From the NCBI GenBank assembly GCA_949130485.1, contig OX422194.1, positions 4,724,699 through 4,788,698 on the forward strand: DNA of 64,000 bases. Reading direction: 5' to 3'. This document shows positions 18,480 through 43,200 of the stretch, one piece after another. The notes under the pieces were generated by a model. The model was not told where the DNA came from. It did no database searches and worked only from the letters and a program-made list of their open reading frames with translations. The stretch's first letter is position 1. Each line of letters starts with the position of its first letter. The position numbers and the translations under genes were made by a program. The DNA comes from Agelas oroides. Its lineage: Eukaryota > Porifera > Demospongiae > Agelasida > Agelasidae.

Positions 18480-18808
18480 TCAGTTGCATTGGGAAACGTC
18501 AAAACGACTAAACTGGTAGCCACTCTCACTAAACAGTTCTGGTACTATGTAATCTTTGTAGGAAGATCCATCAAGTACACGATCATTAGGGTCTTGAATT
18601 TCTCTGTCAGCTCCACCTTGCCTGTCACCCACATAAAGGCAAGGTCCTTTCTCAGACTCCCAAGTATAGTCAAAAATGAACCCTGTGAAGGAAGCCACCT
18701 TGTTAGTGCCTGGCCGGGTAACGTTCACCACGTAATAAACTTCAGAAGTGTTCCAGCCTATTTCCCCAGTGTATGCTGACACCCTTATGGGAACATTCCA
18801 AAACTGGC
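18480..18808 (-). CDS. Gene B last exon: ITIH C-terminal-like domain, second half
   Basis: Phase 1 start, TGA stop. The exon junction creates HGLLG-QFWNVPIRV, and near the end it reads VLDGSSYKDYIVPELFSESG. From memory, inter-alpha-trypsin inhibitor heavy chains end with an HGLLGQF block and a final [IL]DG.Y.DYIVP motif, in the same order and spacing class. No transmembrane or GPI tail is seen; the protein ends DVSQCN. Confidence 0.72.
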
Positions 18809-21800
18809 CTGCAGAGAAAGAATAGTTATGCAAATTTTGAGACATTGCCTACCTACTTCACTTGAGTATTATGGCATGTTATCATTAAAGAATGAATAAC
18901 AAACTTTGCATTTTGTGTAATGAACAAAATGGGCAGTGACAAAACAAAAAATGAATGCACGAACAATCAATGAACCACATCTCCCTAAAAAATAGGCCTA
19001 GATGTTATGTAAAGTCACCCACTGTGCAGGATGTGTTTAAGCCAATACCAGGCCTCATCAGCTGTGCTGGGGTGACTGGGAGATGGGGACTGCTATCTCA
19101 TGCACAAAATGCAGTCAAGACATTCAACCATTGATAGGGGTGCATACAATCTGTATGAGTAGTGCTAACATTTACTACATTTAGATACTGGACTAAGGGG
19201 ACCTCACTCAGGATGCTATATTAGGTGATGGAGAGAGCAATGCACCAAATCCACCTTACCCAGAAGACCATGAGCATTTCTATGTCCAAAGTTCAGCCCT
19301 CTCATAACTGCTATCTTAATCATCTCGGCAGTAATCTTCCCACCATTGACGTGATCATCTACGGTGTTGTTCTGACAAAAGACCCAAATCACCAGGCTGA
19401 GATCGTTACAGTTTGGGACAGCCACCCTCACACGCCGGGGATATTGCCTCACTCGAATACCTCTATAGTTGTAGCGGACAGTCTGATTAAGAGGCCTGCC
19501 ATCAATCATGGCAGAGCAGCCATTGAGGTCAACAGAGATGTTCCTGCAGTGTCTCTCACCACCAGACTCTACAGCCCGTATGCCAACTCTGTCAATTACA
19601 TTTAGATGAGCAGTTATATCGATGTAGTGTGCATTTACAGAAGCACAGTCATCTGTCACAAAGTTGAAATATTCTCTGGGTCGACCATGAATCTCGTAGC
19701 AGAGTGACAATCTCTCCGCACCAAGCTGGGCTAGATCTGACTCTTGAACCAGAACAGGGACAGTTAGTAGAGGGTCACCAATCACAGTGTCGTTCACCTC
19801 AATAGCTGCATCTAGTGTTATAAGAGTAAACAACAGTCATTAGCGCTAACCCTACACACTAAACTATAGCAAACTAAATGGACAGCTAACTAGTAGGAGG
19901 AATATGGTATCTGTACCTGTTCTATACATAACTTGAACTACTTATGTACCATCAATAAACACTGTTGCTGTAGCAGGAATCCCAGTCTGAACTTGAGAAA
20001 GGTTGGCAGGCAGTTGTATGGAAATGTTGAAATGTTCCTGTCTCTCTCTTATGGAATCAGGAAGGATTGTGATTGATATGCATTGCTGTGCATCAACTTG
20101 TCTTCCCAGAGTTACTGGAAAACTTCCACCAATGTAGTCCTCACCATCTACACAGTGAAAAGGATATGACTGTACTCATGCCCACTGGCACAGTTAGATA
20201 GTAAATATTAAATTAAAATGTTTATCATAGTTCCGCCTAGAAATGGTTTGCTAAAAAACTTTAATCAATCAATCTACATAACTGTCCAAAGGTTTCTAAA
20301 GAGCGTACTTCCCATAGAACAGAGTGTCTAACTCATCTAGAGTATAGCAACAATAACCATTGGACACACTTCCAGTCCATTTATTGGTGACCTGCCACCT
20401 GTTTGGTTGCTGGGCTGCTGTGAATTTGAAGCTTCAGTTCACACCCGAAAACAACTTGAACAGAACAGATATCAAGCTCCACTTTTCGCTAATTAATACT
20501 ATCCTTGGTTACTGTTGCTACCATTCGATAGATAATAGAGTCGTATGACTCTATTATCTATGACCATAGTAAATGTATATAGAGGGAAAGCATCTATCAC
20601 AGATACATCTATCATAGATGCTTTTCCTCAAGTCTCCATGATATTTAGTTACCTAATCAAATTTCACTATTCTTGGTAGCTATACTCTAAGGTGTGCACT
20701 ATGCAGGCTATGCTCACCCAGTGCACTGCCGTTGATTGTGAACACCAACACAGAAAACTCCACACCAGTCTCTAAGTCTTTCGTGAGGCACACAGTGGCA
20801 GGACCACTGTTCTCATTGATGGTGTACTCTGGCTGCACAAACCGCACATTCACAACTGTACAGCACAAGGTCATAAAATAAACAGATTATTTGTAGGTTT
20901 ACAATACACTTTACGCTACAGTATATGCGTATACCTCTCTAATGCAATTTGATCAATGAGTGTAAATAGATACATTAGTGCAACCGTGGAAAACTTTATT
21001 GGTCTAGTTGGGATTTATGTGTGAAGTGAAACATGGAGCTTATAGAAGTTCATGATATCCTAGTGATTCAAATCCAATACCAGAGATGGGGTCCGGACTC
21101 GGATTTTCAGCAACAATGATGGTGGTTGTGCTGGTGGCAAGCGCCACATTTTGTCCTTCGGTTCTCAGTCCTAAGCTGAATGCCTCTGTTTCGAGTGCAA
21201 TTGGATCAACTACAGCTGTCAAGTTCACACACTGTTGTCTCACAGTTGAAGAGAAAGTTAACTCCTCATTGATAGGAATGTAGTCATCGTTGGCTGCATG
21301 ACAGACAGACAGGTGAAATGAGAGATACCGCAATTATTCTACTACTACTACTATGATTCAGTTTAACATAAAAAATTCAATTCCAGGAATTTGTCATGAA
21401 TCCAATTCTAAGTAAGCCGGAGTCTTAATTTATTCACGCTAATCCAATTTAGCATAAGAAAATGACTGAAGCCAACCTTTGTGGCCTTCCTACCAGTCCA
21501 AGCTATGCTTGGTGCAGCCTTCATAGGTCACAGATTTCAATGCACACAATTCGAGGAAAAAACAGCTGTACACTTACCTAGGCAGCAAAGAATGCTTGGG
21601 ACTGCCTTTATTGGTTGTAGAGTTTGACAAGGTACAAACGCAATTCAAGGGAAAGACAGCTATACACTATAGGTAGCTTAGAATAGACTCCAGACCCTAC
21701 GTCAAACTAGCGAAAGGACACTTGGCATATTGCCTTCATCAGTTACAGAGTTCAATAAGGTCTGTACACAATTCTAGGAAAACAGGCTTGCGAAAAAACA

Positions 21801-24800
21801 CCTTCACGATTCCACTTATTGTGATTCTCTAGGAAAAACAAGCTATACACTTACCTAGCTTGCAAAAGCATGCCTTTCATGTTTCCACATATTGTTATTC
21901 TTTTGCAACCTAAGATCTAATTTTACGCAACAAATTCAATTTCAGGAATTTATGATGAATCAAATCCATAGTATTAGAATAATTACGGAAGGTATGTACA
22001 TGAAATAGGCATAGTATCATGTCATACCACAGGGAAATTTGTGTAGACTATGCATGAAAAGTTGTTTTAGGAAATCCAGTGAACAGCACATAGAATTCAA
22101 ATTTCATTCATTGACACACTGATTGGTGCTCTTGGAAATAAATTTTGCAAAACATTTATAATTCTTGTAACCCAATGGTTGGCACAAATTTGTGTGCGCA
22201 TCTCTATATACAGCAATACATACTGTAGTGTATCTTCCATTTATAGTACATGTACCTGTTGCTGTGTCATCAGAGCTGAATACTGTAACCACGACAGTTT
22301 TCTCAAGTATGTCTGACAGTACAACTACACATGCTTTTGCTGTCACTCCCTCTGTAGTTTCATAGGTGGTCTGCTCAAAACCAATGGTCACATCTAGGGA
22401 AGATTGTGTGTGTGTGTGTGTGTGGTGATACCACTCAGGATGTTTGAAACCTTAATACAGACTACTGTATAGAGTCACTGTTTTGTTATAAAATTCGTGT
22501 GGGCATAGCTACATCAAAGGTTAAAGTAATGAATCAGTCTGTCAACAAAGTATCAACTTAGAATGAGACTATGCATGAAATGTGTCATGCCCACCATCAT
22601 TGCATTTAGACTTCAAGCAGTTCCTCATGCAGCATTTGTCACTGTTAGGACAGACCTTATGCACTGTTGTTGCTAACTGTGCTGTAAGCCGTGATTTCTT
22701 GCATGAGGACAGGGATTAAGGGATAGACTTGCTACATTCTCATGGGGGTGCAGTTTCACAAAGAAAGTGTGCGAGGTAACTGTCCTACTTGGCACCTTTA
22801 GTGTTTGCAAATTTGATGGATCTGTTTCATTTGTGAACATTACTCTTGCTTATTTCGCTGTAGCTTTACTGCCACAATTAGCAGATGAATTCATCCTCCA
22901 ACAAATTACTGTAACCTCAGGAACTAAGCAGTGGTGCCTATTTTCAAAATCAGTTGCCAGAATTTGTGCTTGTAATCATGGGGTGCTTATATTCATGGGT
23001 ACTAATAAATGCATGTGTCAGCGATATGGCGCTTCAAAGGCAGCGATGTGATCGAAATACGCGATAGAATAACCTTCGATTTCTACACGGGACTGGCACA
23101 TGTAGTATCCTAATAGTATTGAGAATGTAATAGCTGTGGTGTGTTTAAGGCCTTGCTTGAGGTTCTTTTCTAGCTATTGTCCCACACTTTAAGCTTTCAA
23201 GAAGCAGAGATACAGTTTGACGATCATTGCCAACCCCTGCCCACCAAAGGATCATGTTTGGTGTTTAGAACTAACAAATCCCCAGAGGTTTTGCTGATCC
23301 CTAGATACAATTATCTGGTGGCATATACTGTATGTTGGTTTTCATCCTGTGTTGATAGCTTATTTACAACTGGCAGAGATAAATGTTAGCCTGGCATTAC
23401 GTTTGAAAAGTCTGAATCAGCAATTGACTCATTTGCATGGTAATTAATACTTTAAATGGGGTGCCTATTTTTTATGGGTGCTTAATGTAGTTGTTGTAAT
23501 CCAAGGAGGTGCTTATATTATCAACTTCAACGTACTGTCTCCTTCATCTTGAATTATGACTGTTGCCTCATCTGGTGAAATGTTCACAGGGTCACCAACA
23601 TCATTCACCAAATAAGCAGAGAATATCTCAATCTCCTCCTCCAAAATGTTGTCATCATAGATTGGGACACTGACAAGCTGTTGCAACATTCCTGGTCCAA
23701 ATGTTATACTAGTCATCACCATTTCATAGTCAGCTGGAGCTGGTTGGAAGAAAGAAATAACGACCAATATCACTACACCATCAACAGTTATGACTTGCCA
23801 TTAATTTGGTAATCATGTGACCAAGTATGACATCACTATTCCAAAAAGGGACTAAAAATACATTGCTAAAATACCATTTATTCTCCTTTAGATATAAGGT
23901 TGAAACTAGTGTGAGGCAAAAGTAAATGGTTGATATTACCAGGATCCTGGGTTGGAAACAAAAGCATGTACTACAAGATGACTATAGCCAAAAATGTCAT
24001 TGTGATGGTGTACACCAAGAGCGCATAATGACACGTCATTTTTATTTGGGAGGGAGGAGGAAGAGCGTGTAACTTCCTATTCTGGCCGTGGTGAAAGCAG
24101 AATCTTTCGCGTGTACTATAAATAGCACATTCGGTTGAGTTGTAGCTAGTGTGCAGGTGAAGCGTGAGTAAAAGTAGCTGCCAAACAATCGAGTTAGAGG
24201 CTTATCCGTTGGATAAGGACCGCGCGTTACTCAAGGAGATGCTCAAGAGTTTGACTGAAAAGGCTACGCGGCCCTCTTCGACTGTCAGGTGTGGATAGCA
24301 TCGTAACACAAAGTTCCTCACATCAGGAAGGGCCGACAACCGTTCCTGCGAAGGTAGAACTTGCCAGGTAAGCTTTGAGCGTTCTCACCTTGTTGACTAC
24401 GAGGGTATCACTGCATTGTGAGGTTGTAGATCGTGGAACAGTGAACTTGTGCGAAGGCGTGTTCTATTTTTAGTACACGCGGGAGATTCTGCCTGTTTCG
24501 AAATTTTGCCAGTTACACGCTCTTCCTCCTCCCTCCCAAATAAAAATGACGTCATTATGCGCTCTTGTGTACACTAATCAGAAAGTCACTGTTTTCTCCA
24601 AAATTATGAGGCCATGCTTCATATTGTGATCACCTGACTTTTATATTGGAGCCAGTGACGGCCAAGCCAAAAACCATGTTTAGCACCTTAGCCACCAACT
24701 TTTCCCCCCCTACTTATGTGATAAAGCACATCCTCCTCACTAAGAATACTGGATGGGAAAATATGAATCTATTCACCTTCATTAGTTCTAGTGCATTGTG

Positions 24801-27800
24801 AAGTTAGGTGCAATTTGGTGAGTACAGTTTTTGAGGTATTCAAACTTTGCATCTAAGGAACTGTTAACAAGCTGCCCATGCCTTAATGCTGCTGAGCATG
24901 CGCATCTACACAACCCCACCAACAGTCATGGACACACAAGCTCACGTGTAGAAGTAGCACTGGCACGACTGGTCTCAAAATTAATGGTGACGTTTCTCTG
25001 CAGTGAGCCTTCCCTAAGAGCCACAGTCAATATTACAGCTCCACCACTCTCTGCAACTGTGTATTCGGTTGGCTCAAACCCAATAGTAACTCCTGCAGAA
25101 AGGATGTACCAGTGTGTGTTCAGGATGGGTAACTACATAGTAAACACCTAATATTTTAAGGTCAGAATTCTTCTGTCAGTGTTAGTGCATCTCTACATAT
25201 ACACAATGCACAGCAGGCTTCTGAGGATTCATTACAGTCACATATAATATACTATATGAAGTGCTTCACAATTGAAATAATTTATTATACTGTTCCCATT
25301 ACACAATGCATGCACACTTAATGAACAAATAATTTATCATTTTGATTTCCTGGTGTGTGTAAGTCTGTTTCTGGCATACTCAATATTTGCTGTAGGGTAA
25401 CCCAATTTGTATCTCGTATTGACAGTTGCCAATGCAAGGTGCGGAAAACGACACAAAGACATAGGCCCAGTTTTGGCTATCACATGCCAAAGATGATGGC
25501 CTCATGTAAAGATGATGGCCTCATATAAGATGATGTAAGACCCATATTCCATATCTTGCAGAGGATTTACTATGTACTGTATTTGGTCTCAGGGCCAAAA
25601 GTGGTCAATTCAATAATGGAATGGTTGGTTGATTGATTGATAATAGTATGCCAAATATAATGGGAGTGCTTTCTGAGCAATAGAGAAGTATATGAAATGA
25701 AAGGAGTCTACACTTCATGTAAAAATTATAATCACCTCCTTTATGAGACCATTGTTTGGCTATGCCACAGGAAGGGCCTCGGATACATGTACATTTGATT
25801 TCAAAACTCATATAGGACCTCTCACTTACTGTCAGCACTGTCCTCAACAATGGTGATTGCAGCTGTCTGTGGAGCTACAATGACTCCTTGGTCTATCGCT
25901 TCAAGATTACCAACAAAGGTTTCATTGTTCTCCAAAACATCATCATTTTCAATCATGATGATGACAGGTTGTGATCTGAAGACTCCATTGAACTGCAGAA
26001 CAATTCCTAGTGTATTAACAAAATCGTCAGGGGCTGTAGAAAGAGGAAATGTATTATATACCATGAGTAACATTATAACCATTAGTAAAATTGATATTTT
26101 GGCTGAGAGTGCTAGTATTTAAGAAGGTCTTGGGTTCAAACACCAACTGGATCCCGGAATTTATTCCTGTATGTTTATTTCATTTATTTCTCACTATCTC
26201 AGCAAAAACATCAATATTCATAAGTACCTGCTGTGGTGAATAACATCAAGCCTCTGTATTAGCATAAGTGTTGCCTAACTGGAGTATCACAGATCTAGAA
26301 ATTATTGTTCTAATAATACCTTTTCGTGGTTTGTTTAAATCATGAAAATTAATTATAGTGGAGTCTAGCTGTATTGATATACATAGGTTACAAATATATG
26401 CGCATTTCTCAACAAAGATTATATTACACCTGTCAGTGGCCTTCACACGCAGTAGCTAGTGTATGTGCCTGAGTTTATTATTGCAGCTCACGTACAGAAG
26501 GCAGTGCCATTGGTCAATGTGAACAAGAGAGAAACGGCCCTCTGCGCTATTCCTGTGGTTATTGAGACATTGAGCTCAACCCTCCCAGCAGCCTCATTCA
26601 CCTGGTAGGCCATAGGGGTAAACCCAATGGTAACATCTATAGGAAAGGGATGGGAAGGAAAGAGATAATGTTAGTGATATTGAGTGAGCCCAAATTGGAA
26701 AAAGGATGTGGTCACACATTTTCCATACGTGTTTATTTAGCATAGTATTACCACTTGCATGGAAGATCATGACGTAGCTAGCTACTGTTGACAATAACAT
26801 TACAGAGTGTGTGGAAAAACCTTGCCAAGAAGCAACTAGCAGCTAATTCGATACAGAGGTAGGCACCTCACACATAATGGCACCTGTTACTGCCCAAATA
26901 GATATACAATTGCTGAATCCAGTTTCTGAACACAGTGGCCAACTTTCTTTGCCTGCTTTTACTGTAAGCTTGTGATAATACACTACTCTTTAAGCACACT
27001 ACAAGATCTAAGATAAAGGAAGTTGTGCATACAGAACACAGACGATACTGAGAGTGGTAGTGATTCTTGAGTGTGCAAGCTGAATACTAGCAAGAATGGT
27101 AGCTTCCCCTAAGCTGTCTCAAGTAAGAAATATGCATGGCACACCAAGCTAGACTAATTGCCAGGCCAGCCCCAATTATTAATGTTTTACATTGTAGAAC
27201 TGTGACAGTGGATGTTAGCTACCCAAACAACAAGCTCAGTGCTGGTCCACCAAAAATACTATCTCAGGCTCTTCTTTTATGCACTAGGTAATAATGCTCA
27301 TGTTCACATCTGAATTGTGGTAATGTTTGTAACTTGTGTACTATGATGACCAACTCACTATCATCATCCATAATGCAGCACAGTGTGCTATCATTTCCTG
27401 GAGCAATGCCCAACATGTCTGGAGAACCATCTGGTAGCTGAATCCTCAGTACCAGGCACTCTAGTAGCTCCTCCAGCACAGTGTCATCCAGCACTGACAA
27501 GGTGAAGCATGTTTCACCTGCTGCACTGTCCATCAATGTCACATTGATTGTCAGGTCTATTGCTTCATAGTCAACATTAGGTGTGGCTGCAGATGAAGTA
27601 AATTCATGTGTAATCTGCAACAGCAAGATTAATGTGACATGCAGCAAAGCCATGTTACAAGCGGTATAGCTTTGTGGTGCCGGCAAGCAGCAAAACGTAA
27701 TAGGTAGCAGCAAGTTAGTCTGATGAACTGTTCTCTCAAAATGAAGGTTGTGACATTGATACATTAACTACGGCAGGCAGCTGTGACAGATAGCAAAGTT

Positions 27801-29148
27801 GGGCAACATGCAGCAGCAAAGTTGTGTGATATGCATAATTTGCAAGGGAATAAAATGTGTCACATTCTGTATTGCACATGTAGCCTTGATTCTAGACATG
27901 AATTTCTAGTACCTACCAGCTATGATGCCGGTCATGTTAAACTCTGAAGGTACCATGGACCGAACATTGATCTGGAATGGCTGTAAAAATTGATGGCTAA
28001 ATTTTACACAAACATCAGTTGTTCCAATGTTCTCTGGAATATCAGTAGTAGTCTTCACCAGGGAAAGGAGGAGCTCTGTGAGGGAGGAAGGAAAGTGTGA
28101 CAGCATAGAAAAGATGAAGTAGAGAGGTGTCAGGATTACAGTAAAGGGAGTGGTGGGTAAAAACTGAGTCGACTTCTGATATAATGAACAGCACTGAAGT
28201 GCAGAACCCTCAGCGCAAGCGAGATGATAAGTTGCCATATGTGTTCAGTTCTGTTCTTGCCTATGCAAAGTCTGCTCACGTGTTTCAGAAGCTCTCTTAC
28301 TCGCTTTGCAGACTTTGTCTCTCTCTTTCCTCACTAATAACTCTTCCTCAGACAGTAAGGCTTTTCTACGTTTCATTATGTTCTCAGGCTCTCCAACAGC
28401 AGTACACCGTGCTTTCCTTTTCTTCGATGCGAAGGCATGGCCACAGTCACAAACTGACCTCTTCACATGCACTACGGGATTACACTGTGGCATAACTTTC
28501 TCAGATACATAGACCTATTGCACTCCATTGCATGCACTACGGTATTACACTTTGGGCATACCTTTCTGAACCTCTCGTAAAAGACAGTCACAAGCGTCTA
28601 ACAGGTCTAAGTTCGACGGAAAAACCACAATACCGCAAGTTTATAACACTTCTGACTTTGAACTAAGCAGTTTTAGAGAAAATGGCTTTTTAGTTTTACT
28701 GCATTTTCTGTGCTGTAGCCGCTGGTACCAAGCCCGAGAAGGCAGAATAGAGAAAACGGACACACAGACACACACACACACACACACAGACACACAGGAC
28801 AATTACTGTAACACTCGCGCATGCGCGCTGAGGGTTAATAACACTAGCTGATATAATAACACTAGCTCCAATAAAGGCATACATCATGTGCAATGCACGT
28901 ACACATACACACACATGAACAAATTATCTTACCATCATCATCCATAATCCCAACATATGTTGTATTGTACATCCCAAAAACATGCGATCCATTATCAAGG
29001 TTGCTTAGTGTAAATGTAAGAGTTTCTGTAAGCTCAAGAGCCATGTCATCATCATTTATGAGGAAGTCCACACATGATTCATTGTCTTGGGGTGCGAATG
29101 TCACAATTTGGGCAATAGACCCCAATCCTTGCTGTAAATCTGGTACGT

Positions 29149-29179
<31 letters not shown>

Positions 29180-32100
29180 GGGGGGGGAGTTCATACATTT
29201 AGCCATACATTTAGCCATGAATGCTCTAAAAGGACAGGGACCACCAGCATATATGTTTGTCTACTTAATCTGTGCTGACAACTCAGACAGTAATGTTCCT
29301 TTCGTGGATCCTGAGTGTATTGAAGCTAGATAAAGCTGTGGCACTATGCAGTCTCTGTATTATGTTACTGTGAGAATCTTGAGGGGTTTTACTTGTAAGC
29401 AAGGATTGTGACAATAGGAGGGCTGTAGTATCCAAAATCATGCCATATACCGCTCTGAACCACTCTCAACAGCCTAGACCAAGTAATTGGTTTTTCAATC
29501 TGTTTCTCGGTCCATCTGTCTCATTGTCAACATATATCACTCAAACTAGATGGTTTAATGACTCTTCGTGCATAATGCAGACCATCATATTTTAGTACAT
29601 AGCTATGTACTTCAATGTGTATATTTCACAAGTTGAACAATTTCTCATTTACCAGGAGTCTTTCCAGACAGCAGGTGAAACCCACCCGGATACATGTCTA
29701 TGTTCTCCTGATAGTGAATCTTGTAGTAAAAGTCTGCAAGTAAGTGCTCTACTGGGCACCTTAGCTTCCACTGCTCTGTTTATATAGGCAGGCATTGCAA
29801 GTAAGGTGTCTAGTGATAATCATCTTCAGCAATACAAATAAGGGCTGAAGCTGATTTAGGGAGAGAGTAGCCACAATGTCCAGGTTTGGATGGTTCAATC
29901 TTGAAACTAGTATGTACTGGCCTCCTTCTGGCATAATCATTCTGGGCTAGTCAACTGACGGGGCAGCATCATGGCAGTTCTCTCAGCCCAGCTGTTAATA
30001 GGGTGGTCTATTACCAGCCGAACCACTGTTGGTTGGTAACAGCGAAGCTGTTAGAGTGCTTGGGTGTAAACAGGCACCGAGGCAATTTAATTGTCTTACA
30101 GTCAATCCTCACAGTCCTGATAGATCATACTTTGCAGATAAAGTATGAATATGTTCATTTATTATCCAGTTGATATTTCTACAACAGTATTTTCCTATTC
30201 CCGTGCCGTGCAATATCACACGATATTGCACGGGTAGTTATTGCACAGGTAGTTATTGCACGGGCCCTGAGGCTATAATTATACGCGCGATATCCTAGCA
30301 ACCAGCGTGCACTTCAATTAGAACCAGTGCGTTTGAACGGCGAGTTACTCGGGACTTTGTGTGAGAAGAGACACGACGCTGTTGTGGTAGTGGATAATAA
30401 ATACTTTATTACACTCGTTAGCGTGCATATCGCGGTTATTCCACTCGTGGGCTGCATTTCCACTCGCCTTCGGCTCGTGAAAATACCATCCCCACTCGTG
30501 CAATAACTCGCGATATTGCACGCTAACTCGCGTAATAAGGTATATCTAAGTATAGAGTTAATTTAAGTATTCAGTTGCCCTAAAGGGGCAACTGAATACT
30601 TAAATTAACTGATTACCGATAACTTATTACCGATTGATGACCCACTGCAGGATACAGAAGGGTCAAAATTGAGCATGACTAACTTACCTCAACTGACTCA
30701 ATACTCACCTCCATAGGTCATGACTAACTCAACACTCATGTTCATGGATCATGACTAAATTAACATTTACTTTCACTGATCATGACTAACTTAATAACCC
30801 TTTAATACCGAAAATAAATTTTCATTCAACGTTTCTCACCAGCTTCCTAGTATATGGTGATACACTACGCTAAGCGCTTTCCGTGGTCAACTAAAACTTG
30901 GGGGACTTCCCTCACAAATATCAGCAATCCCAAACGTGCAGTTATCTAAACAGCAAAGGGTGGGAATGAATGAGGCGGGGCCAATTACGGACCTAACCGT
31001 ATGCCAGGACTCCATTCAAACAGCTGTACAAAAGCACTCATTCTCTACAAAAATTTGTTGATTTTTACTTGGCTGACGGAGAGAGGGGACCAACAGGGAC
31101 TCATAAATGAAGTGCTATTTCAGTTAAGCTTAGAACGAAGGTAGAGTAAGTTAGCAATTATCGGACGACAGCTATATTCGGACGCTCAAACGCTGAGGGA
31201 AATCTGCAGAAACATTCGGCGATACCACAAGACTGTAGCAGAGGTACGCGGTACCTGGTGTACCAAAAATGACACCCGCTCATTGTTTCCTGTTGGCATT
31301 AGAAGCGATAAAATGGCTGTCCAAAAAACATCAATATTTGGAGAAGCTGCACTACACATAAATCAACCAGCGTACTTTATGGAAAAACATGAAATATATT
31401 TATATCTCGAGAACTACTCAACGCACAAACAACAGTGTCTGAAAATAGATACACTTCTCCGAATATTGATGTTTTTCTCGCTTCTAGCGCCAACAGGAAA
31501 CAATGAGAGGACGTCATTTTTGGTACATCAGGTACTGCGTACGTCTTGTGGTATCGCCGAATGTTTACGCAGTTTTCCCTCAGCGTTTGAGCATCCGAAT
31601 ATAGCTGTCGTCCAATAATTGCTAACTTACTCTACCATAAGCCTTTTTAGTCATACCGTTCGAATGGTCATAGTTATAGGATGTGGGGATACTTACCTAC
31701 CACCCAGAGTAGTATCAATCTCTCTCACCTCATGTCCAGGGAGAAAGAAGCAGTAGAAATTATCACTATTAAATTGTTACCAAAAGAGCACTATCGGTGT
31801 TAAAGGGATAACACTCATGTTCACTGATCATGATTAACTTAACCCTTACTTCCACTGATCAGACTAACTTAGAACTTATCTCCATGACTATCTTATCAAC
31901 ACTCACCTCCACTGATCATAATTTGAAGAGTCTCTGAGGTGCTGTTTACTTTGTCTATGCACACTGTCCCCATGCCAACATTCTCCATGAACACGTACAT
32001 CTGTTGCCTGAACGCGAACATCACATCTGCAGAGAGATATCAAAATGAAGCTGGATCACCTCAATTGTAAGGCAATTGGAAATGTCATGAATTTGACGTT

Positions 32101-35100
32101 GATGTGTTAGGGAGGATAGATTTCACACATCATATGGTGGAAAAGTTCTACTAGGGAACACTTTTTTGTCAATTTAACCAGTAATTTCATGCCAGTAGCA
32201 AAATGTTACCAGCAAAATTGTTGTGTTTGTTGGCTTTTAAATGTAATGATAACATTTCTTGAGGCCACTGATAATATCACCTAAATCCAGACCTATTCTG
32301 TTTTGCTGGCCGGGAAGGGTGGGTTAGGGTAGTGAGTGATTAAGGGACCAAACACTTCTCACCCAGAATCACCACAATTATGAGGTTGCTTGGCATGGGT
32401 CACGGTGGAGCCACCACTCACCCCGCCACTCCACAATATGTTCAGCTTTCCTAGCTACCCCAACCCATTCGCTCCAGGGGAACTACTAGGCAAAATTGGC
32501 TATAAAATTTGCACATAATTGCAGCGCCATTGATGAAAAAAAGGATTAATCAGCTAGCTGATTGAAGCTTGGAGAAAAGACAGTCATGTCCAGTGTTGCC
32601 TAGTAGTGTCTTGAAGATATTCTTGGTGCAGTCCTAGGATATCAGACCTCCTGGGATTGTCCTGGGACACCCCTGTGGCTGGTGTCTGAAGGATGAATAT
32701 CCCAGTACAGCCCTGGGTCATCCCTGCAGGCTGGGGTGACCTTGTTTTCAAAGATCCAACAAGGGACGTCCCAGGACTGTCCTGTGATATCCCTGCGAGC
32801 TGGGCGGGTGATGCGATGCCTGGAGGATCCCATGAGGGCCATCCCAGGACAGCCCTGGCACATCCCTGTACATTTGTGATCTTCCTAAAGCTAAAGAACT
32901 AATGTCCACAGTCATTGTTAGTTGTATTTGGAAATTATTGATTCAAATGTGCATGTTCTGTTTCACACAACACACAGTCATGCAGCCATGGGATCTTCCA
33001 GACACCAAGTCATACGTATCTTCAAGGACTATCCTAGGATGATGGATGTCCCAGGACTGTCCCAGGATTTCCCTTCAGACATCAAGTTACACCAATCTTT
33101 AGGGTGTCCCAGAACTGTCCTGGGATGTCCCTCATGGGATCCTCCGGACACCAAGTCACCCCAGCCAAAACATCCCATTTGGTCCGGACTGTACTGGATA
33201 TCCCATTATGTCCAGACAGTCCTGGTATGTGTCAGAGATTTGTAGGAAACACTGGACATCCCTTAGAAAAGGGGGTAAAGTACAGTTGCTGGATGGTGGT
33301 AGTGCGGCTGGACATGGATCCAACAACAAAATACTCTTGTTTAGCCATGCTTGGCACAATTTCCCAACTACTGGGAAACCATACCTTTTGGTGAATGCTA
33401 ATAGCGTTTAGCACTTTCCCATTGTGAGTTCAGTATAGGTATGCTTACTTCACATTCCCCCATACAAATTATGTTTAAGTATCTGTGTAAAGACCAACCA
33501 ATAGGTGTGACTTTCCAATTGTTATTTGAAGTAAGTCTGGAGAACAAGCAGTTTGTTTAAAATGATCATATTTCAGAATGATATGCTGTAAACAATGAGT
33601 GGGAGAAATATATTTACTGTATGGCTGGAAAATCTGGTAGGATTAAATTTGACGGATTGTTCCATATGGCTGTGTACCGTATTTCTTCGATCAGGTGCTG
33701 CGGCTACTATTTATTGCGCTGCTCGTTTTATGCGGCTACTATTCAAGGGTGGCGTTTATTTCTTTGGAAAGCCTGGAGACATCCACGACAGCTGGATAGG
33801 GTAAGAACGAGTGAGACAGTGATGGTTGCTAGACACTGTCAGTAGTACGTGTAGTCTCTCAGTCCTGCTGTCAGTTGTGGGAATGACTCGTATAACACAA
33901 ACAGTCCTAGCGCTAGCGTGGTGACCGTTGTCAGAAATCATTCGCACACATGTGCGCGTGCTGTGTTTACTAGCCGCAGCTACTATTCGAGGGTGGCATT
34001 TATTTCGTTCAAGAGCTTCGGATTGTGTGGCCACTATTTGAGGGCAGCCACTATTCGAGGGTGGCGTCTATTCGAAGAAATACAGTATATAGAAAAAATT
34101 TGGGAATTTCTCCATACAAGCCAGTGTGTGTGCCATCACTTATGCACCTGCTAAATGGATGATAGTCAATGAGTCTAGTCAGCCAGCATTTGCTTCTTGT
34201 ATTTCCCTCTCTTTGAGGGAGGGGACCTTCGTAGGCACCACTGGACAAAAATACTTGAGTAATGTCATAGTCTAGTCCACTTCACACTAGTTTACGCTTG
34301 TGATCAATCAACAACGTCGACTGATCGACGTCTCGTGCCTGGATGCTTGGGGACCTATTTGGATAAACGGAATTTAATTTGTGGTATGCTTGTCCAACTC
34401 CCAATCTGCCAAATATAATTCACCAAATTTTCCGGCCATACGCTATGTCAGGGTGTAAGGATTCAAATCTCACCTGTTACAACCACCGTTCCTGAAGACA
34501 TTCCCCTGGCATTCTGCACTGTGCAGCTGAATGTTCCCATAATGGCATTCTGATTCATTGATGTGTCAATGGTGAGCACTGTCTGGTATGTGCTAGTTGT
34601 TGTGTTCATCACCATCTGTGTCTGCTGGTGAGTAGTATTGGGGGTTATCACAACCCCATTCCTACTCCAGGTGACGGTCCTAGCCGACCCACCAGTGGAG
34701 ATGCAGGTGAAGCTGTTAGACTGCGCATTGAATGTTACACTAGTTACACTAGGTGAGCCTGCATAAATATAATATAATCAAAATTAAAATAAAGTGCAGC
34801 TGGTTTGTGAGTAGAATATGATAAGGCAGAAATCCATGTTATTTCAGTATGCACATAGATCACTGCCAGTACACATTCATTATATGGTCCTGTACTACAG
34901 CACTTGGGGCCCAGAAATAGTTGCATCTCTGGGAAAATTATAAGACCCAGCGAGAATATGTTCTACTATCTATGTATAGATACAGTTAAAAGCAACGACT
35001 TAACAATTGTATACGACTTTTATTCATGCCATAGTAAAACCTGGTACAGTAGCGAAAATAGCTTGCAAATAAGTAAATTGACTTGTACATACAAGGTTCA

Positions 35101-38100
35101 TATGCATTAGTCAGGTTCTAAAGACAATTGTGTCTACGAGACATGCTGCAGTGGTTGTCCCAGGAGCCAACTGTCTTTTTATGGTTCAGCCATCGATCTG
35201 TGGTTTGTTCAAAATCTCACATGTCATTTGATCACAAAACTTAACATTCTGCCAACAAGCGCATCCAGTCTTTTTTATCCGTAAGCTACCTGTTACTGTT
35301 GAATTATATGGGAGGTATAGTGAACCTTTTAATGGTTTACGCTATTTAGCTCCACTTCCAACATTTGCTATTTTTTCACAGGATAGGTGCACCGTGGCAC
35401 TAACTACTATGCACTCAGACTGGATGTCCATTGTTTTCTTGGGTCTGTGTATTATTTTGTTTATTAAATTTCTTGCATATTGGAATATTATATACTGAAA
35501 GTAAAGTTGGGTAGAATGTCTTTACCCACAGGCGAAATTTTCTACGCAGCAGTGCGTAGTTGCAAAATTTTGGCAAGTGAATAGGTACATAGATACTTAA
35601 GATTAGGACATACATAACCAAACTGTAGGGGTGGAGCTCTGCATACTGACCCCTGCTTGATTACAAGTGTACTCTAATATGGTTGAAGTTTACTTTCCAG
35701 CAGCATGAGCATTTGAAAGCAACAGTTGTATACATGCACCACTCACCAATGTTTTCTGTATACACTCCAATGTATAATGTCTGAGTAACATTGCTTGCGT
35801 CAGGTACAACACAGCAGTAAACTCCTTCCTCTCCACCTCTCCTCCTGTGCAGAAGTACCGTCATATTACCTCTTGTACTGTAGAAGTTCCATGGTTCATT
35901 GGTTGTTGAATTATCAGTTTCATTAGGGACTGTAGTTCCATTGGGGAAGAACCAGTTCCCTCTGACACCCTCCATGGCACCAGCATAAGGAGGTCGGCAA
36001 CAATCAGTTGCATTAGTCAGGCAGAGCAGAGCAGCATCACTTTCACCGATGTCCTCCAGGGTCACAAGACTGTTGTTCTGGTAGGTTGTACCATTGAGCG
36101 AGAACCTGACTTCCTCAGGGATAGGAAGTTCTGTTGCCCCGATTGTTATAATGGCAAAATTTGAATAAACTTTTATGACAACTGAACAAGCTTGATGTAA
36201 TTGTTTACTGTTGTTACATGTAACTCCACCCTTAAAGTTTACTGTGACATCATTTCTGGTCATGCCCATAAACAGGTTAGCTCTATCAAGCCCCTCCCTT
36301 GGGGTATATCAGTGGACTAAATGTGACATGCAGAATTCACATCAGCAAGATTTCGTGATGTTTCTGCACCAATACATTCTATTTAATCTGACCCAACTTT
36401 TCATCCAAAGTTCTTCAGGTGGCGGTGAAGTCTTTCGGCGGAGGTTAATGAAAACATAAACTTGGGTTACAGTCAGGACCAAGGTTACTCCTAGTTTCAG
36501 GGTTAGGGTTTGCTTTAGGGCAATCTTGCTTTGCGTAATTTTAAAAAGGGTTTTAGTGGCTCATTAATATATTCATGAACCCAAAATTGCCACTCGATGG
36601 ACGCATCTACACACTCACTGTAGGTAGCGTCCTAACCACCAATGTATCTCAAATCAATCTATGCCAACGTTTGTTCAGAGCTACTCTCAAGGTCAGGCTA
36701 GACTCATGTTTGTCACTAACTCTTGGAATGGACAACTTTGACTGCACCAAAATGAAAGCACATCTCGAAAAATTCACAGTTTGTCTATGGGAGGGGCTCA
36801 TTCACGAGTGGAAGCAAACATTACTAGCCCCACCTCTCCCCCTTATGTCACTAAACAACTCACGGCTCTGTTCCACACACAACCACCGTTCAGCTCCCTT
36901 GGGTACCAGAGTGTAGCACCAACGATAAATTGTGTATTCTAGTTAAAGCCCAGCCCAGCACTCGAAGCACCTGGCCACGGTCACCAACTAGGCTAGGCAT
37001 ACGGCCGTGAGACCTGGGCCTACTCAACAAATACAGTCTTGGCCACTGTGGCCTTTCTGCTGCTTCTAGACACAAGTTTGCTTTCACAAGCAGGCATTAC
37101 GCACTACTCATAGCTATGACACTACAGCACTCTACTAAACTCCTGTTTTGTGTTTTTTTAATTTATTTTTTATTATTTTTTTAAAGTCGATCTAAGCTTA
37201 TCTTCAAAGTTCCGACCAGGTTCCGCCAGGCCACATTTTAACTAACTTAATTATAAACTGATTATTGGATGCCAATGCCAACAGGAAATGGGGAAAATCC
37301 CCAATTTTACGGATAGTGAACGGATGAAGACTCCCAAAACTGACTGTTTGCTACTAGCTTAACAAGACAAAGATGTCTATCAGCTTGGATTCCAGGCTTG
37401 TCGACCTTGAAAGTACAGGGTTCTCTGCCACCTTAAGATGCTGCAAATGACTGAACTATGAATATTCCACACGTTACATTTGTCAAGTCAGCCCAATCCA
37501 GTGCTACCACAGAACAAACATGACACCACTAATCATATTCTTGAGGACCAATGAATGGAATTTTGCCTAGGGGTACCACACAGAGCTAGCTAAATCCTAT
37601 TAATATGCATGAGGGAAGAGATTGCCTGACTTCCAGCCGGAATTACATCTTAATGAGATTCATTGATCTCAATTCGGACATTAACTCTTTACCCCCGACG
37701 CGCATGCGCAGAAATCAATCTCGTAGCCACGAGATAAGATATTGATAAAATGGCGATTTTGTATCATGATGATTCATAGTGTTATATCTTGTAAACTAGC
37801 TGAGTTCACAGGTTGATAGTTAGGCTTAGTTTAATCAAAAACAAACCTGCTTTACTCAGGAAGTAGTCATACGAGTTGATGGTGAAGTTCGACTAAGCCA
37901 GAACAGATGAAGAGCGGGTACTCGCTATCCATTGGAAATGACGGGAAATCCGTGGCCAAACTCCCAGCGAAGGTACGTTTTCATTGTTGTTTAGATGATT
38001 AGCTAGAAACAATTCTGTAGAACTAGTTGCGCGTAGAATACAAGCTGTTCTGTGACAATGCTAGGTTCAACACGGTCGGCAGCCAAACTTTGAATGCGAT

Positions 38101-40263
38101 TTCCGGGGAAAGTCCCTATGGGACACCCCGGCTAATTATGCTTCGATCGACTTCCTGTGGCTTATAATAACTATATGTACTAACTCAAAAACGTGCAGCT
38201 GTGGCGATAAGTAGCTGGAAACTAACTTGGGCGCATACGGGCGCTATCGGGTTTAAAGGTTGTAAAAATTCCGGGAGCATACGGGTACTATCGGGGGTAA
38301 AGGGTTAACAACATTCACAAGTATCCAAGGAGGGTTAATTAGATTCATAGCCCTGTTCTGTTCGGGTTTGAGTCCATGAAAGGCTTAGGGCATACTCATT
38401 AATATTCAACATCATTTACCCATTCCTTTCAACCCCAAGCCAAACTGCCAGTGCTTCAACAGAAGGTCAATAATGAGGTTCATGAGAGTCAACATACTCT
38501 AACCCTCCCATTGGACAGCTGACTGAACCCAGGGTTGTTCATGGGTAATGCTGAGGTCTAGTTAAAGCCAACTCATTAATATTCATGAATGGACAGGAAC
38601 ACTCCAGATTTTAGAGCTAGGTTGGCTTTAGATTCATAGCCTCAATTAGGGTTAGGGAGAGTAGGGTTAATGAGGTTAGGGTTAGGGATTTAGGGATAAG
38701 GCAAACTAGGGTTAGGGCTAGACTTAGGGTCTTAATTAGCTTCCCCACTCTCAGTCATCTACTAAGTTGTTTAGCCCTGTATGCAGTTGATATGCAGGAC
38801 AAAAATGGGAGCAAATTTGGTGAAAAAGCCTCGGATATTTTAGTTTGTGTATATATTGCCTCCCACATAGTGCAAAATAACCAACCAGGCCTACATTGAC
38901 AAGGTCTCAAGGATTCTACAGGTTTATGTTCGCGTAGAACTATCATGTTTTCCAAAATGTTTTACATTGTAGAACTGTGATGGTGGATGTTAGCTACCCA
39001 AACAACAAGCTCAGTGCTGGTCCACCAAAAATACTATCTCAGGCTCTTCTTTTATGCACTAGGTATTAATGCTCATGTTCACATCTGAATTGTGGTAATG
39101 TTTGTAAATTGTGTACCATGACGACCAACTCACTATCATCATCCATAATGCAGCACAGTGTGCTATCATTTCCTGGAGCAATGCCCAACATGTCTGGAGA
39201 ACCTTCTGGTAGCTGAATCCTCAGTAGCAGGCACTCTAGTGGCTCCTCCAGCACAGTGTCATCCAGCACTGACAAGGTGAAGCATGTTTCACCTGCTGCA
39301 CTGTCCATCAATGTCACATTGATTGTCAGGTCTATTGCTTCATAGTCAACATTAGGTGTGGCTGCAGATGAAGTAAATTCATGTGTAATCTGCAACAGCA
39401 AGATTAATGTGACATGCAGCAAAGCCATGTTACAAGCGGTATAGCTTTGTGGTGCCGGCAAGCAGCAAAACGTAATAGGTAGCAGCAAGTTAGTCTGATG
39501 AACTGTTCTCTCAAAATGAAGGTTGTGACATTGATACATTAACTACGGCAAGGAGCTGAGACAGATAGCAAAGTTGTGCAACATGCAGCAGCAAAGTTGT
39601 GTGATATGCATAATTAGCAAGGGAAAAAAATGTGTCACATTCTGTATTGCACATGTAGCCTTGATTCTAGACATGAATTTCTAGTACCTACCAGCTATGA
39701 TGCCGGTCATGTTGAACTCTGAAGGTACCATGGACCGAACATTGATTTGGAATGGCTGTAAAAATTGATGGCTAAATTTTACACAAACATCAGTTGTTCC
39801 AATGTTCTCTGGAATATCAGTAGTAGGCTTCACCAGGGAAAGGAGGAGCTCTGTGAGGGAGGAAGGAAAGTGTGACAGCATAGAGAAGATGAAGTAGAGA
39901 GGTGTCAGGATTACAGTAAAGGGAGTGGTGGGTAAAAATTGAGTCGACTTCTGATATAATAACACTTGCTCCAACAAAGGTCTACATCAAGTGCAATGCA
40001 CATACATACACACACACACATGAACAAATTATCTTACCATCATCATCCATAATCCCAACATAAGTTGTATTGTACATCCCAAAAACATGTGATCCATTAT
40101 CAAGGTTGCTTAGTGTAAATGTAAGAGTTTCTGTAGGCTCAAGAGCCATGTCATCATTATTTATGAGGAAGTCCACACATGATTCATCGTCTTGTGGTGC
40201 GAATGTCACAATTTGGTCAATAGACCCCAATCCTTGCTGTAGATCTGGCATGTGTGTGTGTGT

Positions 40264-40294
<31 letters not shown>

Positions 40295-43200
40295 GGGGGG
40301 GGGAAGTTCATACATTTAGCCATACATTTAGCCATGAATGCTCTAAAAGGACAGGGACCACCAGCATATATGTTTGTCTACTTAATCTGTGCTGACAACT
40401 CAGACAGTAATGTTCCTTTCGTGGATCCTGAGTGTATTGAAGCTAGATAAAGCTGTGGCACTATGCAGTCTCTGTATTATGTTACTGTGAGAATCTTGAG
40501 GGGTTTTACTTGTAAGCAAGGATTGTGACAATAGGAGGGCTGTAGTATCCAAAATCATGCCATATACCCCTCTGAACCATTCTCTTCTTGTCAACAGCCT
40601 AGACCATGAATTGGTTTTTCAGTCTGTTTCTCGGTCTGTCTGTCTCATTGTCAACATATATCACTCAAACTAGATGGTTTAAGGTGGCGGCAGAAGTCAC
40701 TCGGCGGAGGTTAACGAAAACATAAACCTGGGTTACAGTCAGGACCAGTGTTACTCCTAGTTTCAGGGTTAGGGTTTGGTTTAGGGCAATCTTGCGTTGC
40801 CTAATTTTAAAAATGGGTTTTAGTAGCTTATTAATATATTCATGAGTCAAAATTGCCACTCGATGGACGCATCTACATGCTCACTGTAGGTAGCGTCCTA
40901 ACCACCAATGTACCTCAAATCATTCTGTGCCAGCGTTTGTTCAGAGCTACTCCCAAAGTCAGGCTAGACTCATGTTTGTCACTACTCTTGGAATGGACAA
41001 CTTTGACTACACCAAAATGAATGCACATTTCAAAAAATTCACAGCTTGTCTACGGGAGGGGCTCATTCACGAGTGCAAGCAAGCATTACTAGCCCCACCT
41101 CTCCCCCTTATGTCGCTAAACAACTCACGGTTCTGTTCCCCACACAACTCCTCTGCAGCTTTCGTGTCAACGGCAACGTACTACGTACTACCAATGATAT
41201 ATTGCACATTCTAGTTAAAGCCCAGCCCAGCACTCAAAGCACCGGGACACGATCACCTACAAGGCTTGGCATACGATCGCAAGACCTGGGCCTGCCCAAT
41301 GAGTACAGTCTTGGCCACTGTGGCCTTTCTGCTGCTTCTAGACACAAGCTTGTTTTCACAAGCAGGCACTACACACTACTCACAGCTACTGACACTACAG
41401 CACTCTACTAAACTCCATTTTTATTTTTTATTTTTTTTAAGTCGATCTAAGCTTATCTTCAAAGCTCCGACCAGGTTCCGCCAGGCCACATCTTAACTAA
41501 CTTAATTATAAACTGATTATTGGATGTCAATGCCGACAGGATGTGGGAAAAATCCTCGAAGTTTACGGACAGTGAACGGATGAAGACTCCCAAAATGGAC
41601 TGTGCGCTAAAAGACAAAGAATTCTATCAGCTTGGATTCCAGGTTTGTTGACCTTGAAAACACAGGGTTCCCTGCCACCTTAATGACTCCGTGCATAATG
41701 CAGACAATTCATATTTTAGTGCATAACTATGTACTTCAATGCGTATATTTCACAAGTTGAACAATTTCTCATTTACCAGGAGTCTCTCCAGACAGCAGGT
41801 GAAACCCACCCCAGATACATGGCTATGTTCTCCTGATAGTGAATCTTGTAGTAAAAGTCTGCAAGCTACTGGGCACCTTAGCTTCTACTGTTCTGTTTAT
41901 ATAGGCAGGCATTGCAAGTAAGGTGTCTAGTGATAATCATCTTCTGCAATACAAATAAGGGCTGAAACTGATCTAGGGAGAGAGTGCCACACTATCCAGG
42001 TTTGGATGGTTCAGTCTTGAAACTAGTATGTACTGGCCTCCTTCTGGCATAATCATTGTGGGCTAGTCAACTGACGGGGCAGCAGCAGCATGGCACTTCT
42101 CTCAGCCCAGCTGTTAATAGGTTGGTTTCCACTGATCATGACTAACTTAACACTTATCTCCACTGATCATGATTAACTTAACACCTGTCTCCACTGATCA
42201 TGATTAACTTAACCCTTACTTCCACTGATCAGACTAACTTAACACTTATCTCCATGACTATCTTATCAACACTCACCTCCACTGATCATGATTTGAAGAG
42301 TCTCTGAGGTGCTGTTTACTTTGTCTATGCACACTGTCCCCATGCCAACATTCTCCATGAACACGTACATCTGTTGCCTGAACGTGAACATCACATCTGC
42401 AGAGAGATATCAAAATGAAGCTGGATCACCTTAATTGTAATGGAAGGAGTACTTTCACTTGTACACGACTGTTTTTTTTTGGTTTGCAGTATGTGCATGT
42501 GTTTGTATATGTGTGTGTACCGTAAAAGTGGGATACTAAGCAACTGGTGCCTATTTCCGAAATTAGCAAACCAAATGGCTGCTTATAATCATGGGGTACT
42601 TATATTCATGGGGTACTATGCTAAATACATTACATTTAAAAGCCAACAAACACAACAATTTTGCTGGTTACATTTTTGCTACTGGCATGAAATTACTGGT
42701 TAAATTGACAAAAAAGTGTTCCCTAGTAGAACTTTTCCACCATATGATGTGTGAAATCTGTCCTCCTTAACACATCAACATCAAATTCATGACATTTCCA
42801 AATGCCTATGATAACATTTCTTGAGGCCACTGATAATATCACCTAAATCCAGACCTATTCTGTTTTGCTGGCCGGGAAGGATGGGTTAGGGTAGTGAGTG
42901 ATTAAGGGACCAAACACTTCTCACCCAGAATCAACACAATTTGAGGTTGCTTGGCATGGGTCACGCTGGAGCCACCACTCGCCCCGCCACTCCACAGTTT
43001 TCCTAGCTACCCCAACCCATTCGCTCCAGGGGAACTACTAGGCAAAATTGGCTATAAAATTTGCACATAATTGCAGCGCCATTGATGAGAAAAAAAAAAG
43101 AATCAGCTAGCTGATCGAAGCTTGGAGAAAAGACAGTCATGTCCAGTGTTGCCTAGTAGTGTCTTGAAGATATTCTTGGTGCAATCCTAGGATATCAGAC

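What the first reader, a model, noticed from the sequence alone, without database searches (positions are those of the whole stretch)
18480..19811. ITIH-like C-terminal domain at the end of a Calx-beta/Ig/Sushi protein
The last two gene B exons read, in order, GDPLLTVP, LCYEIHGRPREYFNFVTDD, VNAHYI, HGLLG|QFW across the splice junction, and VLDGSSYKDYIVPELF. As I remember the family, inter-alpha-trypsin inhibitor heavy chains end with a GDPHF site, LCF.I, VNG, HGLLGQF and [IL]DG.Y.DYIVP in that order. Here the VIT and VWA domains that normally precede it are replaced by Calx-beta, Sushi and Ig modules. I know of no protein with this combination. It may also be how sponge aggregation-factor C-terminal domains relate to ITIH.
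Basis: partly seen in the sequence, partly recalled or inferred. Interest (0 to 1): 0.85.

Follow-up and report, generated by a model that had tools for sequence, protein, structure and literature searches.

The report
ITIH-like tail on Calx-beta proteins

Summary
The exons are real. Minus-strand exons 19811-19260 and 18808-18480 join in frame through a split Gly codon (292 aa), follow eight exons coding four Calx-beta domains, and are under purifying selection (dN/dS about 0.26 against the nearest paralog). The window copy alone has no Pfam hit. Of 11 aligned family members (14 loci), 4 match ITI_HC_C, but only one clearly (E 5.3e-5; the two others whose E was printed are 0.05 and 0.07). A second group (17 loci) keeps DPHF/Y; 5 of 5 tested match ITI_HC_C (E 2.1e-5 to 2.8e-3). 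The two groups align by profile (E 1.8e-12) and share a phase-1 intron. No hit reaches the curated cut-off. I conclude: a divergent ITIH C-terminal domain. No VIT lies at these loci; Calx-beta, Ig-like, EGF-like, VWD or (once) VWA precede it. The Ig and Sushi modules 5' in the window are mostly splice-compatible but not shown to be in this transcript. Most likely it ends aggregation-factor-like adhesion proteins. Group 2 probably self-cleaves at Asp-Pro; the window group lost the His and gained cysteines, so is probably an uncleaved, disulfide-braced cap. Relation to the sponge "Wreath" domain could not be tested.

The parts
18480..18808 (-). terminal coding exon: second part of the ITI_HC_C-like domain (QFWNVP...CLYVGD...VLDGSSYKDYIVPELF...QCN), then stop
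   Evidence: frame and AG acceptor; 15 genome matches including itself and fragments, E 5.3e-72 to 0.245
19260..19811 (-). penultimate exon: first part of the ITI_HC_C-like domain (GDPLLTVP...LCYEIHG...HGLLG)
   Evidence: frame, AG/GT, phase 1; 15 genome matches including itself and fragments; family hits to Pfam ITI_HC_C, none for this copy
19950..20147 (-). Calx-beta 4, second half
   Evidence: Pfam Calx-beta E 3.6e-17 for the joined pair; phase 1 at both ends
20718..20855 (-). Calx-beta 4, first half
21081..21293 (-). Calx-beta 3, second half
   Evidence: Calx-beta E 1.6e-18 for the joined pair
22256..22393 (-). Calx-beta 3, first half
23536..23739 (-). Calx-beta 2, second half
   Evidence: Calx-beta E 4e-23 for the joined pair
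24946..25092 (-). Calx-beta 2, first half
25830..26033 (-). Calx-beta 1, second half
   Evidence: Calx-beta E 8.4e-18 for the joined pair
26496..26636 (-). Calx-beta 1, first half
27308..32026 (-). further Calx-beta-type exons (32026-31907, 29139-28933, 28075-27917, 27586-27308), colinear with the C6:388k paralog; the 27308 donor is uncertain
   Evidence: tblastn colinearity; borders in phase 1; Calx-beta E 3.4e-6 for the first pair, query with a stray 11-residue prefix; the second pair was not scanned
34474..36169 (-). Ig and V-like modules; 5' border of the V-like module unclear; membership of this gene not shown
   Evidence: Ig_3 E 5.2e-8; V-set only E 0.011; phases
39083..46165 (-). duplicate copy of the Ig/V-like plus Calx-beta block; same gene or a neighbour, undecided; 5' border unclear
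   Evidence: paired tblastn matches of the Calx-beta exons to the same paralog exons; the Ig and V-like copies seen as near-identical reading frames
48610..53351 (-). Sushi array 5' on the same strand (reading-frame limits); membership of this gene not shown
   Evidence: Sushi E 4.5e-39, three stretches, for part of one frame; phase 1 in 3 of 3 exons checked

Best explanation
[quoted passage not shown] Shown: homology by a chain of profiles, a shared intron, coding constraint, and position next to Calx-beta exons. Inferred mechanism: the domain is a VWD-like beta-sandwich that starts at a Gly-Asp-Pro site. In the second group (Asp-Pro-His kept) it self-cleaves at Asp-Pro as VWD domains with GDPH do and as I recall for ITIH precursors, which frees the Calx-beta chain and may leave a reactive Asp end for linkage to a polysaccharide. 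Likelihood by part: ITI_HC_C homology about 0.9; aggregation-factor-type adhesion protein about 0.6; cleaved/uncleaved split about 0.45; covalent sugar linkage about 0.15.
For: Family: 4 of 11 members hit ITI_HC_C, best 23.3 bits, E 5.3e-5; in Pfam no other family is hit by more than one member; two reversed and one shuffled sequence hit nothing. The one site found by the genome-wide ITI_HC_C scan (E 0.5) lies in that same member. Group 2: 5 of 5 hit it as best family, E 2.1e-5 to 2.8e-3, one over profile positions 106-186. Groups align over 209 columns, prob 97.7, E 1.8e-12; 50 column-shuffles reach at most prob 0.99, score 20.3 against 87.6; reversed prob 0.10. Exon 1 alone E 6.7e-10, exon 2 alone E 5.9e-6 over 25 columns, its 50 shuffles score at most 17.4 against 35.3. 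Same intron position in the HGxxG|QF Gly codon in 11 of 11 group-2 loci read and 12 of 12 group-1 loci. Calx-beta domains. VWD within 2.3 kb 5' of three group-1 loci. VWA, EGF-like exon and group-2 domain in this order at C11. DPH[FY] in 11 of 11 group-2 loci read, of 17 found; no His in 13 of 13 readable group-1 loci. PMC10880436 (sections 8 and 11 and passages read): changing Asp or His of GDPH prevents or inhibits Asp-Pro cleavage in FCGBP D10; ITIH3, 5 and 6 have GDPH in a predicted VWD-like fold.
Against: The window sequence alone hits no Pfam family at E<=10 and scores only 11.6 bits against the group-2 profile (E 0.14; best of 220 shuffles 3.8); window alone and window plus nearest paralog against group 2 by hhalign give prob 5.1 and 7.3 only, scores 25.2 and 26.7 against a shuffle maximum of 20.4 for the window alone. 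Of the four ITI_HC_C hits in group 1, two are only E 0.05 and 0.07 and one E was not printed; hits of that strength occur by chance (NCBIfam ahpD in 2 of 11 members, best E 0.061). A consensus of 11 scored lower for ITI_HC_C (E 0.18) than for an unrelated DUF (0.12). No hit passes the 27-bit cut-off. VWD relationship was not recovered by hhalign (prob 2.6 and 3.5, at shuffle level). AlphaFold on single exons failed (pLDDT 39.6 and 36.7). Species, expression, cleavage and sugar linkage are all untested.
Confidence: 0.6

Rival explanations
1. It is the already described sponge aggregation-factor Wreath and/or VWD region, and the ITIH likeness, though real, is the only new element.
For: Calx-beta arrays on C6 around the family loci, with a VWD next to three group-1 loci, fit the Calx-beta, VWD and Wreath set that I recall from Grice et al. 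2017 (not held).
Against: No Wreath sequence could be compared; no held paper has the phrase. Ig-like, EGF-like and VWA neighbours are not part of the definition as I recall it.
Confidence: 0.45
2. It is a new domain family of its own that only converged on a few ITIH motifs (GDP, LCxxI, HGLLGQF, DGxYxDYxV).
For: Window copy has no Pfam hit; every ITI_HC_C score is under the cut-off; three group-1 hits are weak or not printed.
Against: ITI_HC_C is hit by 9 of 16 scanned members across two groups, and the printed stretches lie in the same part of the profile, near HGLLGQF; profile comparison of the groups covers 209 columns at E 1.8e-12 with shuffles far below.
Confidence: 0.08
3. The two exons belong to a separate small gene, not to the Calx-beta gene.
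For: No transcript is available.
Against: Ten exons from 26636 to 18480 splice in one open frame, all introns phase 1; the C6:388k paralog keeps the Calx-beta and ITI exons in the same order; three of three group-2 loci read further 5' also have Calx-beta-like or Ig-like exons there (by eye).
Confidence: 0.05

Closest known systems
[quoted passage not shown] Pfam ITI_HC_C, PF06668)
   Same: C-terminal position, Asp-Pro start, LCxxI, HGLLGQF, C-aromatic and DGxYxDYxV order (ITIH motifs recalled); sub-threshold profile hits in two related groups
   Different: No VIT among nine matches lies at these loci; VWA lies next to 1 of 31 loci; window group lacks the His of DPHF and has six more invariant Cys than group 2
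Sponge aggregation factors (Calx-beta, VWD, Wreath; recalled from Grice et al. 2017)
   Same: Clustered genes near Calx-beta arrays; VWD near three loci
   Different: Wreath not compared; Ig-like, EGF-like and VWA neighbours; ITIH-type domain not in the definition as recalled
VWD domains with the self-cleaving GDPH site (FCGBP, MUC2, SUSD2)
   Same: Gly-Asp-Pro start; ITIH3/5/6 predicted to share the fold (PMC10880436, section 11 read)
   Different: Profile comparison with 10 or 12 VWD sequences of this genome is at shuffle level; window site is GDPL

Membership tests
ITI_HC_C superfamily | significant match of the sequence to the Pfam model | tested here: inconclusive
   window 0 hits; 4 of 11 relatives, best 23.3 bits against cut-off 27, two others E 0.05 and 0.07; group 2 5 of 5, best 24.7 bits
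ITI_HC_C superfamily | homology through intermediates over the whole domain | tested here: met
   group 1 to group 2 hhalign 209 columns E 1.8e-12, shuffles, shared intron; group 2 to ITI_HC_C
ITI_HC_C superfamily | ordered motifs GDP, LCxxI, HGLLGQF, C-aromatic, DGxYxDYxV (motif list recalled) | tested here: met
   seen in the window sequence and in the alignments
ITIH protein family | VIT and VWA domains 5' of the C-terminal domain | tested here: not met
   9 VIT matches, none at these loci; of 33 VWA matches at E<=1e-5 one lies next to a group-2 locus and none in the window
ITIH protein family | DPHF cleavage site | tested here: not met
   window GDPL; His absent in 13 of 13 readable group-1 loci, present in 11 of 11 group-2 loci read
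sponge aggregation factor | Calx-beta repeats | tested here: met
   four Calx-beta, E 3.6e-17 to 4e-23
sponge aggregation factor | VWD domain | tested here: inconclusive
   near 3 of 14 group-1 loci; no match in the window
sponge aggregation factor | Wreath domain | not testable with these tools
   no sequence or paper held
VWD | sequence-profile similarity to VWD | tested here: not met
   hhalign prob 2.6 and 3.5, at the level of shuffles; no Pfam VWD hit in 11 members; the fold itself was not tested

The most novel reading that the evidence does not exclude
Sponge-type Calx-beta adhesion proteins are made like ITIH heavy chains: a C-terminal ITIH-type domain cleaves itself off at Asp-Pro and the new Asp end is esterified to a polysaccharide, which would build the glycan-bearing adhesion particle; in the window's group the cleavage was switched off by loss of the His and the domain became a permanent structural cap.
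Probability: 0.12. Interest if true: 0.85.

Novelty: new variant of a known kind. Interest (0 to 1): 0.58.

Why it matters
It ties a vertebrate serum and matrix domain, known (recalled) for Asp-Pro processing and linkage to glycans, to Calx-beta adhesion-type genes of what is probably an early-branching animal. It gives a concrete, testable idea of how such adhesion proteins could be processed, and it indicates that the ITIH C-terminal domain circulates independently of VIT and VWA.

Tried and rejected
Single-sequence Pfam and PDB searches of the window copy gave nothing useful; a profile of the family found no PDB chain. Pattern-based scans of the viral and prokaryote genome collections confirmed no relative. 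NCBIfam gave only an unrelated weak family (ahpD, 2 of 11 members, best E 0.061). AlphaFold on each exon alone was too poor to search with, so no fold search was run. An alignment of own-genome loci was not sent to structure prediction because its stated rule does not list such loci. A consensus query did worse than the best single members. The idea that the domain is an ordinary VWD found no support in profile comparison with this genome's VWDs, though with few sequences. Literature searches with no hit: (the term was read as itihcc); some searches listed papers, none with a title or opening abstract on this domain in sponges; passages of four of them were looked at. The library holds open-licence papers only, so that the combination is unpublished is not claimed.

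Full report
What is there. They join through a split Gly codon into 292 residues followed by a stop. The window lies at C12:4724699-4788698 of a 259-Mb genome in 141 contigs. Its species is not given; animal and probably sponge is my inference from gene content and was not tested.

The gene. Eight exons directly 5' (26636 to 19950) join with these two in one open frame of 753 residues, all introns in phase 1 with GT and AG borders. They encode four Calx-beta domains, E 8.4e-18, 4e-23, 1.6e-18 and 3.6e-17. The paralog at C6:388-398 kb has matching exons in the same order. The domain copies of window and paralog are 72% identical with dN 0.18 and dS 0.67. Further 5' on the same strand lie more Calx-beta-type exons, Ig and V-like modules, an FN3 module and a Sushi array. 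Of 12 such modules checked, 10 have clear borders in phase 1; for the two V-like modules at 46 and 36 kb the acceptor is unclear. A block of V-like, Ig and Calx-beta exons is present twice, near 46-39 kb and 36-27 kb. Whether all this is one gene cannot be told without transcripts.

The family (group 1). Exon 1 has 15 matches in the genome (E<=0.001) and exon 2 also 15 (E<=10), pieces counted apart. Together I count 14 loci: the window, twelve on C6 between 0.22 and 1.73 Mb (two of them broken or fragmentary), and one at C22:2.82 Mb. Twelve loci have both exons, one of them with its second exon in two pieces, and the donor sits in the same Gly codon in 12 of 12. Eleven joined sequences form alignment A1; a near-copy, a broken copy in two pieces and a fragment were left out.

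Relation to ITIH. The window copy hits no Pfam family at E<=10. Of the 11 A1 members, 4 hit ITI_HC_C: the C22 member at E 5.3e-5, 23.3 bits against a cut-off of 27; two at E 0.05 and 0.07; one whose E was not printed. No other Pfam family is hit by more than one member. Weak hits mean little here: NCBIfam gave an unrelated family in 2 of 11 members at best E 0.061, and a consensus of the 11 hit ITI_HC_C only at E 0.18, behind an unrelated family at 0.12. A search with the C22 member found a second group, 17 loci in all on C1, C4, C6, C7 and C11. The 11 fetched read DPHF or DPHY at the start, and most second exons read GLIDGTYxDY or close to it near the end. Five of five tested hit ITI_HC_C as the best family, E 2.1e-5 to 2.8e-3, again under the cut-off. 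Groups A1 and A2 align over 209 columns at E 1.8e-12, 19% identity; 50 column-shuffles never pass prob 0.99 and the reversed alignment gives prob 0.10. The intron lies at the same Gly in 11 of 11 group-2 loci read. A tree of the 16 aligned sequences separates the two groups with full support and puts the window with C6:388k (100/100). The window copy and C6:388k are the most diverged from group 2: 11.6 and 9.4 bits against its profile, above 220 shuffles (best 3.8) but weak, while the nine other members score 28 to 48 bits. So homology rests on the family, not on this copy.

Architecture in the genome. VIT has nine matches, none at these loci. VWA has 33 at E<=1e-5, one of them 1.2 kb 5' of the group-2 member on C11, with an EGF-like exon between (EGF-like by eye). 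VWD has 19 matches at E<=0.01, three of them within 2.3 kb 5' of group-1 members. Three group-2 loci that I read further 5' show Calx-beta-like exons, followed by EGF-like exons at two loci and by a run of near-identical Ig-like exons at the third, C1:8.07 Mb (by eye). These searches go exon by exon and give lower bounds. The domain thus looks like a mobile C-terminal module of modular extracellular proteins, often with Calx-beta.

Mechanism. In VWD domains the GDPH motif cleaves itself between Asp and Pro; in FCGBP D10 changing the Asp prevents and changing the His to Asn inhibits this, and ITIH3, 5 and 6 carry GDPH in a predicted VWD-like sandwich (PMC10880436; sections 8 and 11 and passages read). 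From memory, ITIH precursors are cleaved at this bond and the new Asp end is esterified to chondroitin sulfate. Group 2 keeps DPH[FY] in 11 of 11 loci read, so self-cleavage is expected. Group 1 keeps Asp-Pro in 11 of 13 readable loci but has no His in any, and has eight invariant Cys (11 sequences) against two in group 2 (5 sequences). I infer that the window domain is mostly an uncleaved, disulfide-braced end module. Sponge aggregation factors are described as extracellular proteoglycans in cell adhesion (PMC8380372, passages seen); a sugar link made by this domain is speculation.

Limits. Structure prediction on single exons failed (pLDDT 39.6 and 36.7). VWD likeness was not seen by profile comparison. 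The Wreath domain of aggregation factors could not be compared, since the paper is not held and no held paper has the term.

Noticed in passing
window 9476-17650 (+): A convergent neighbour on the plus strand reads as V-like and Ig-like exons, FN3-like exons, a transmembrane stretch and a short tail with a tyrosine motif (DAVYEKV): an Ig-type receptor, by eye.
   Followed up: no
window 168-2990: What looks like a long repeat tract gives long spurious frames on both strands (up to 630 aa).
   Followed up: no
window 27308-46165 (-): A block of about 7-9 kb with V-like, Ig and Calx-beta exons occurs twice in tandem.
   Followed up: partly
window 33670-34090 and 11610-11970; L037 near 2817850-2818290; L028 near 2823040-2823450: Open stretches at both window places match the same two places on C22 at 43-84% protein identity: probably an interspersed repeat.
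   Followed up: no
L029 (C6:992080-999650): One group-1 copy is split by about 6.4 kb and carries an in-frame TAG, so it looks broken.
   Followed up: no
L041 (C4:8181660-8182145): One group-2 copy carries an in-frame TAG in its first exon.
   Followed up: no
L061 (C1:8073224-8078050): Fourteen nearly identical Ig-like exons stand in tandem 5' of a group-2 member, a sign of recent exon duplication (by eye).
   Followed up: no
G000:C13:8363308-8417170: VWA matches lie among a Calx-beta cluster on C13, another combination of these modules.
   Followed up: no
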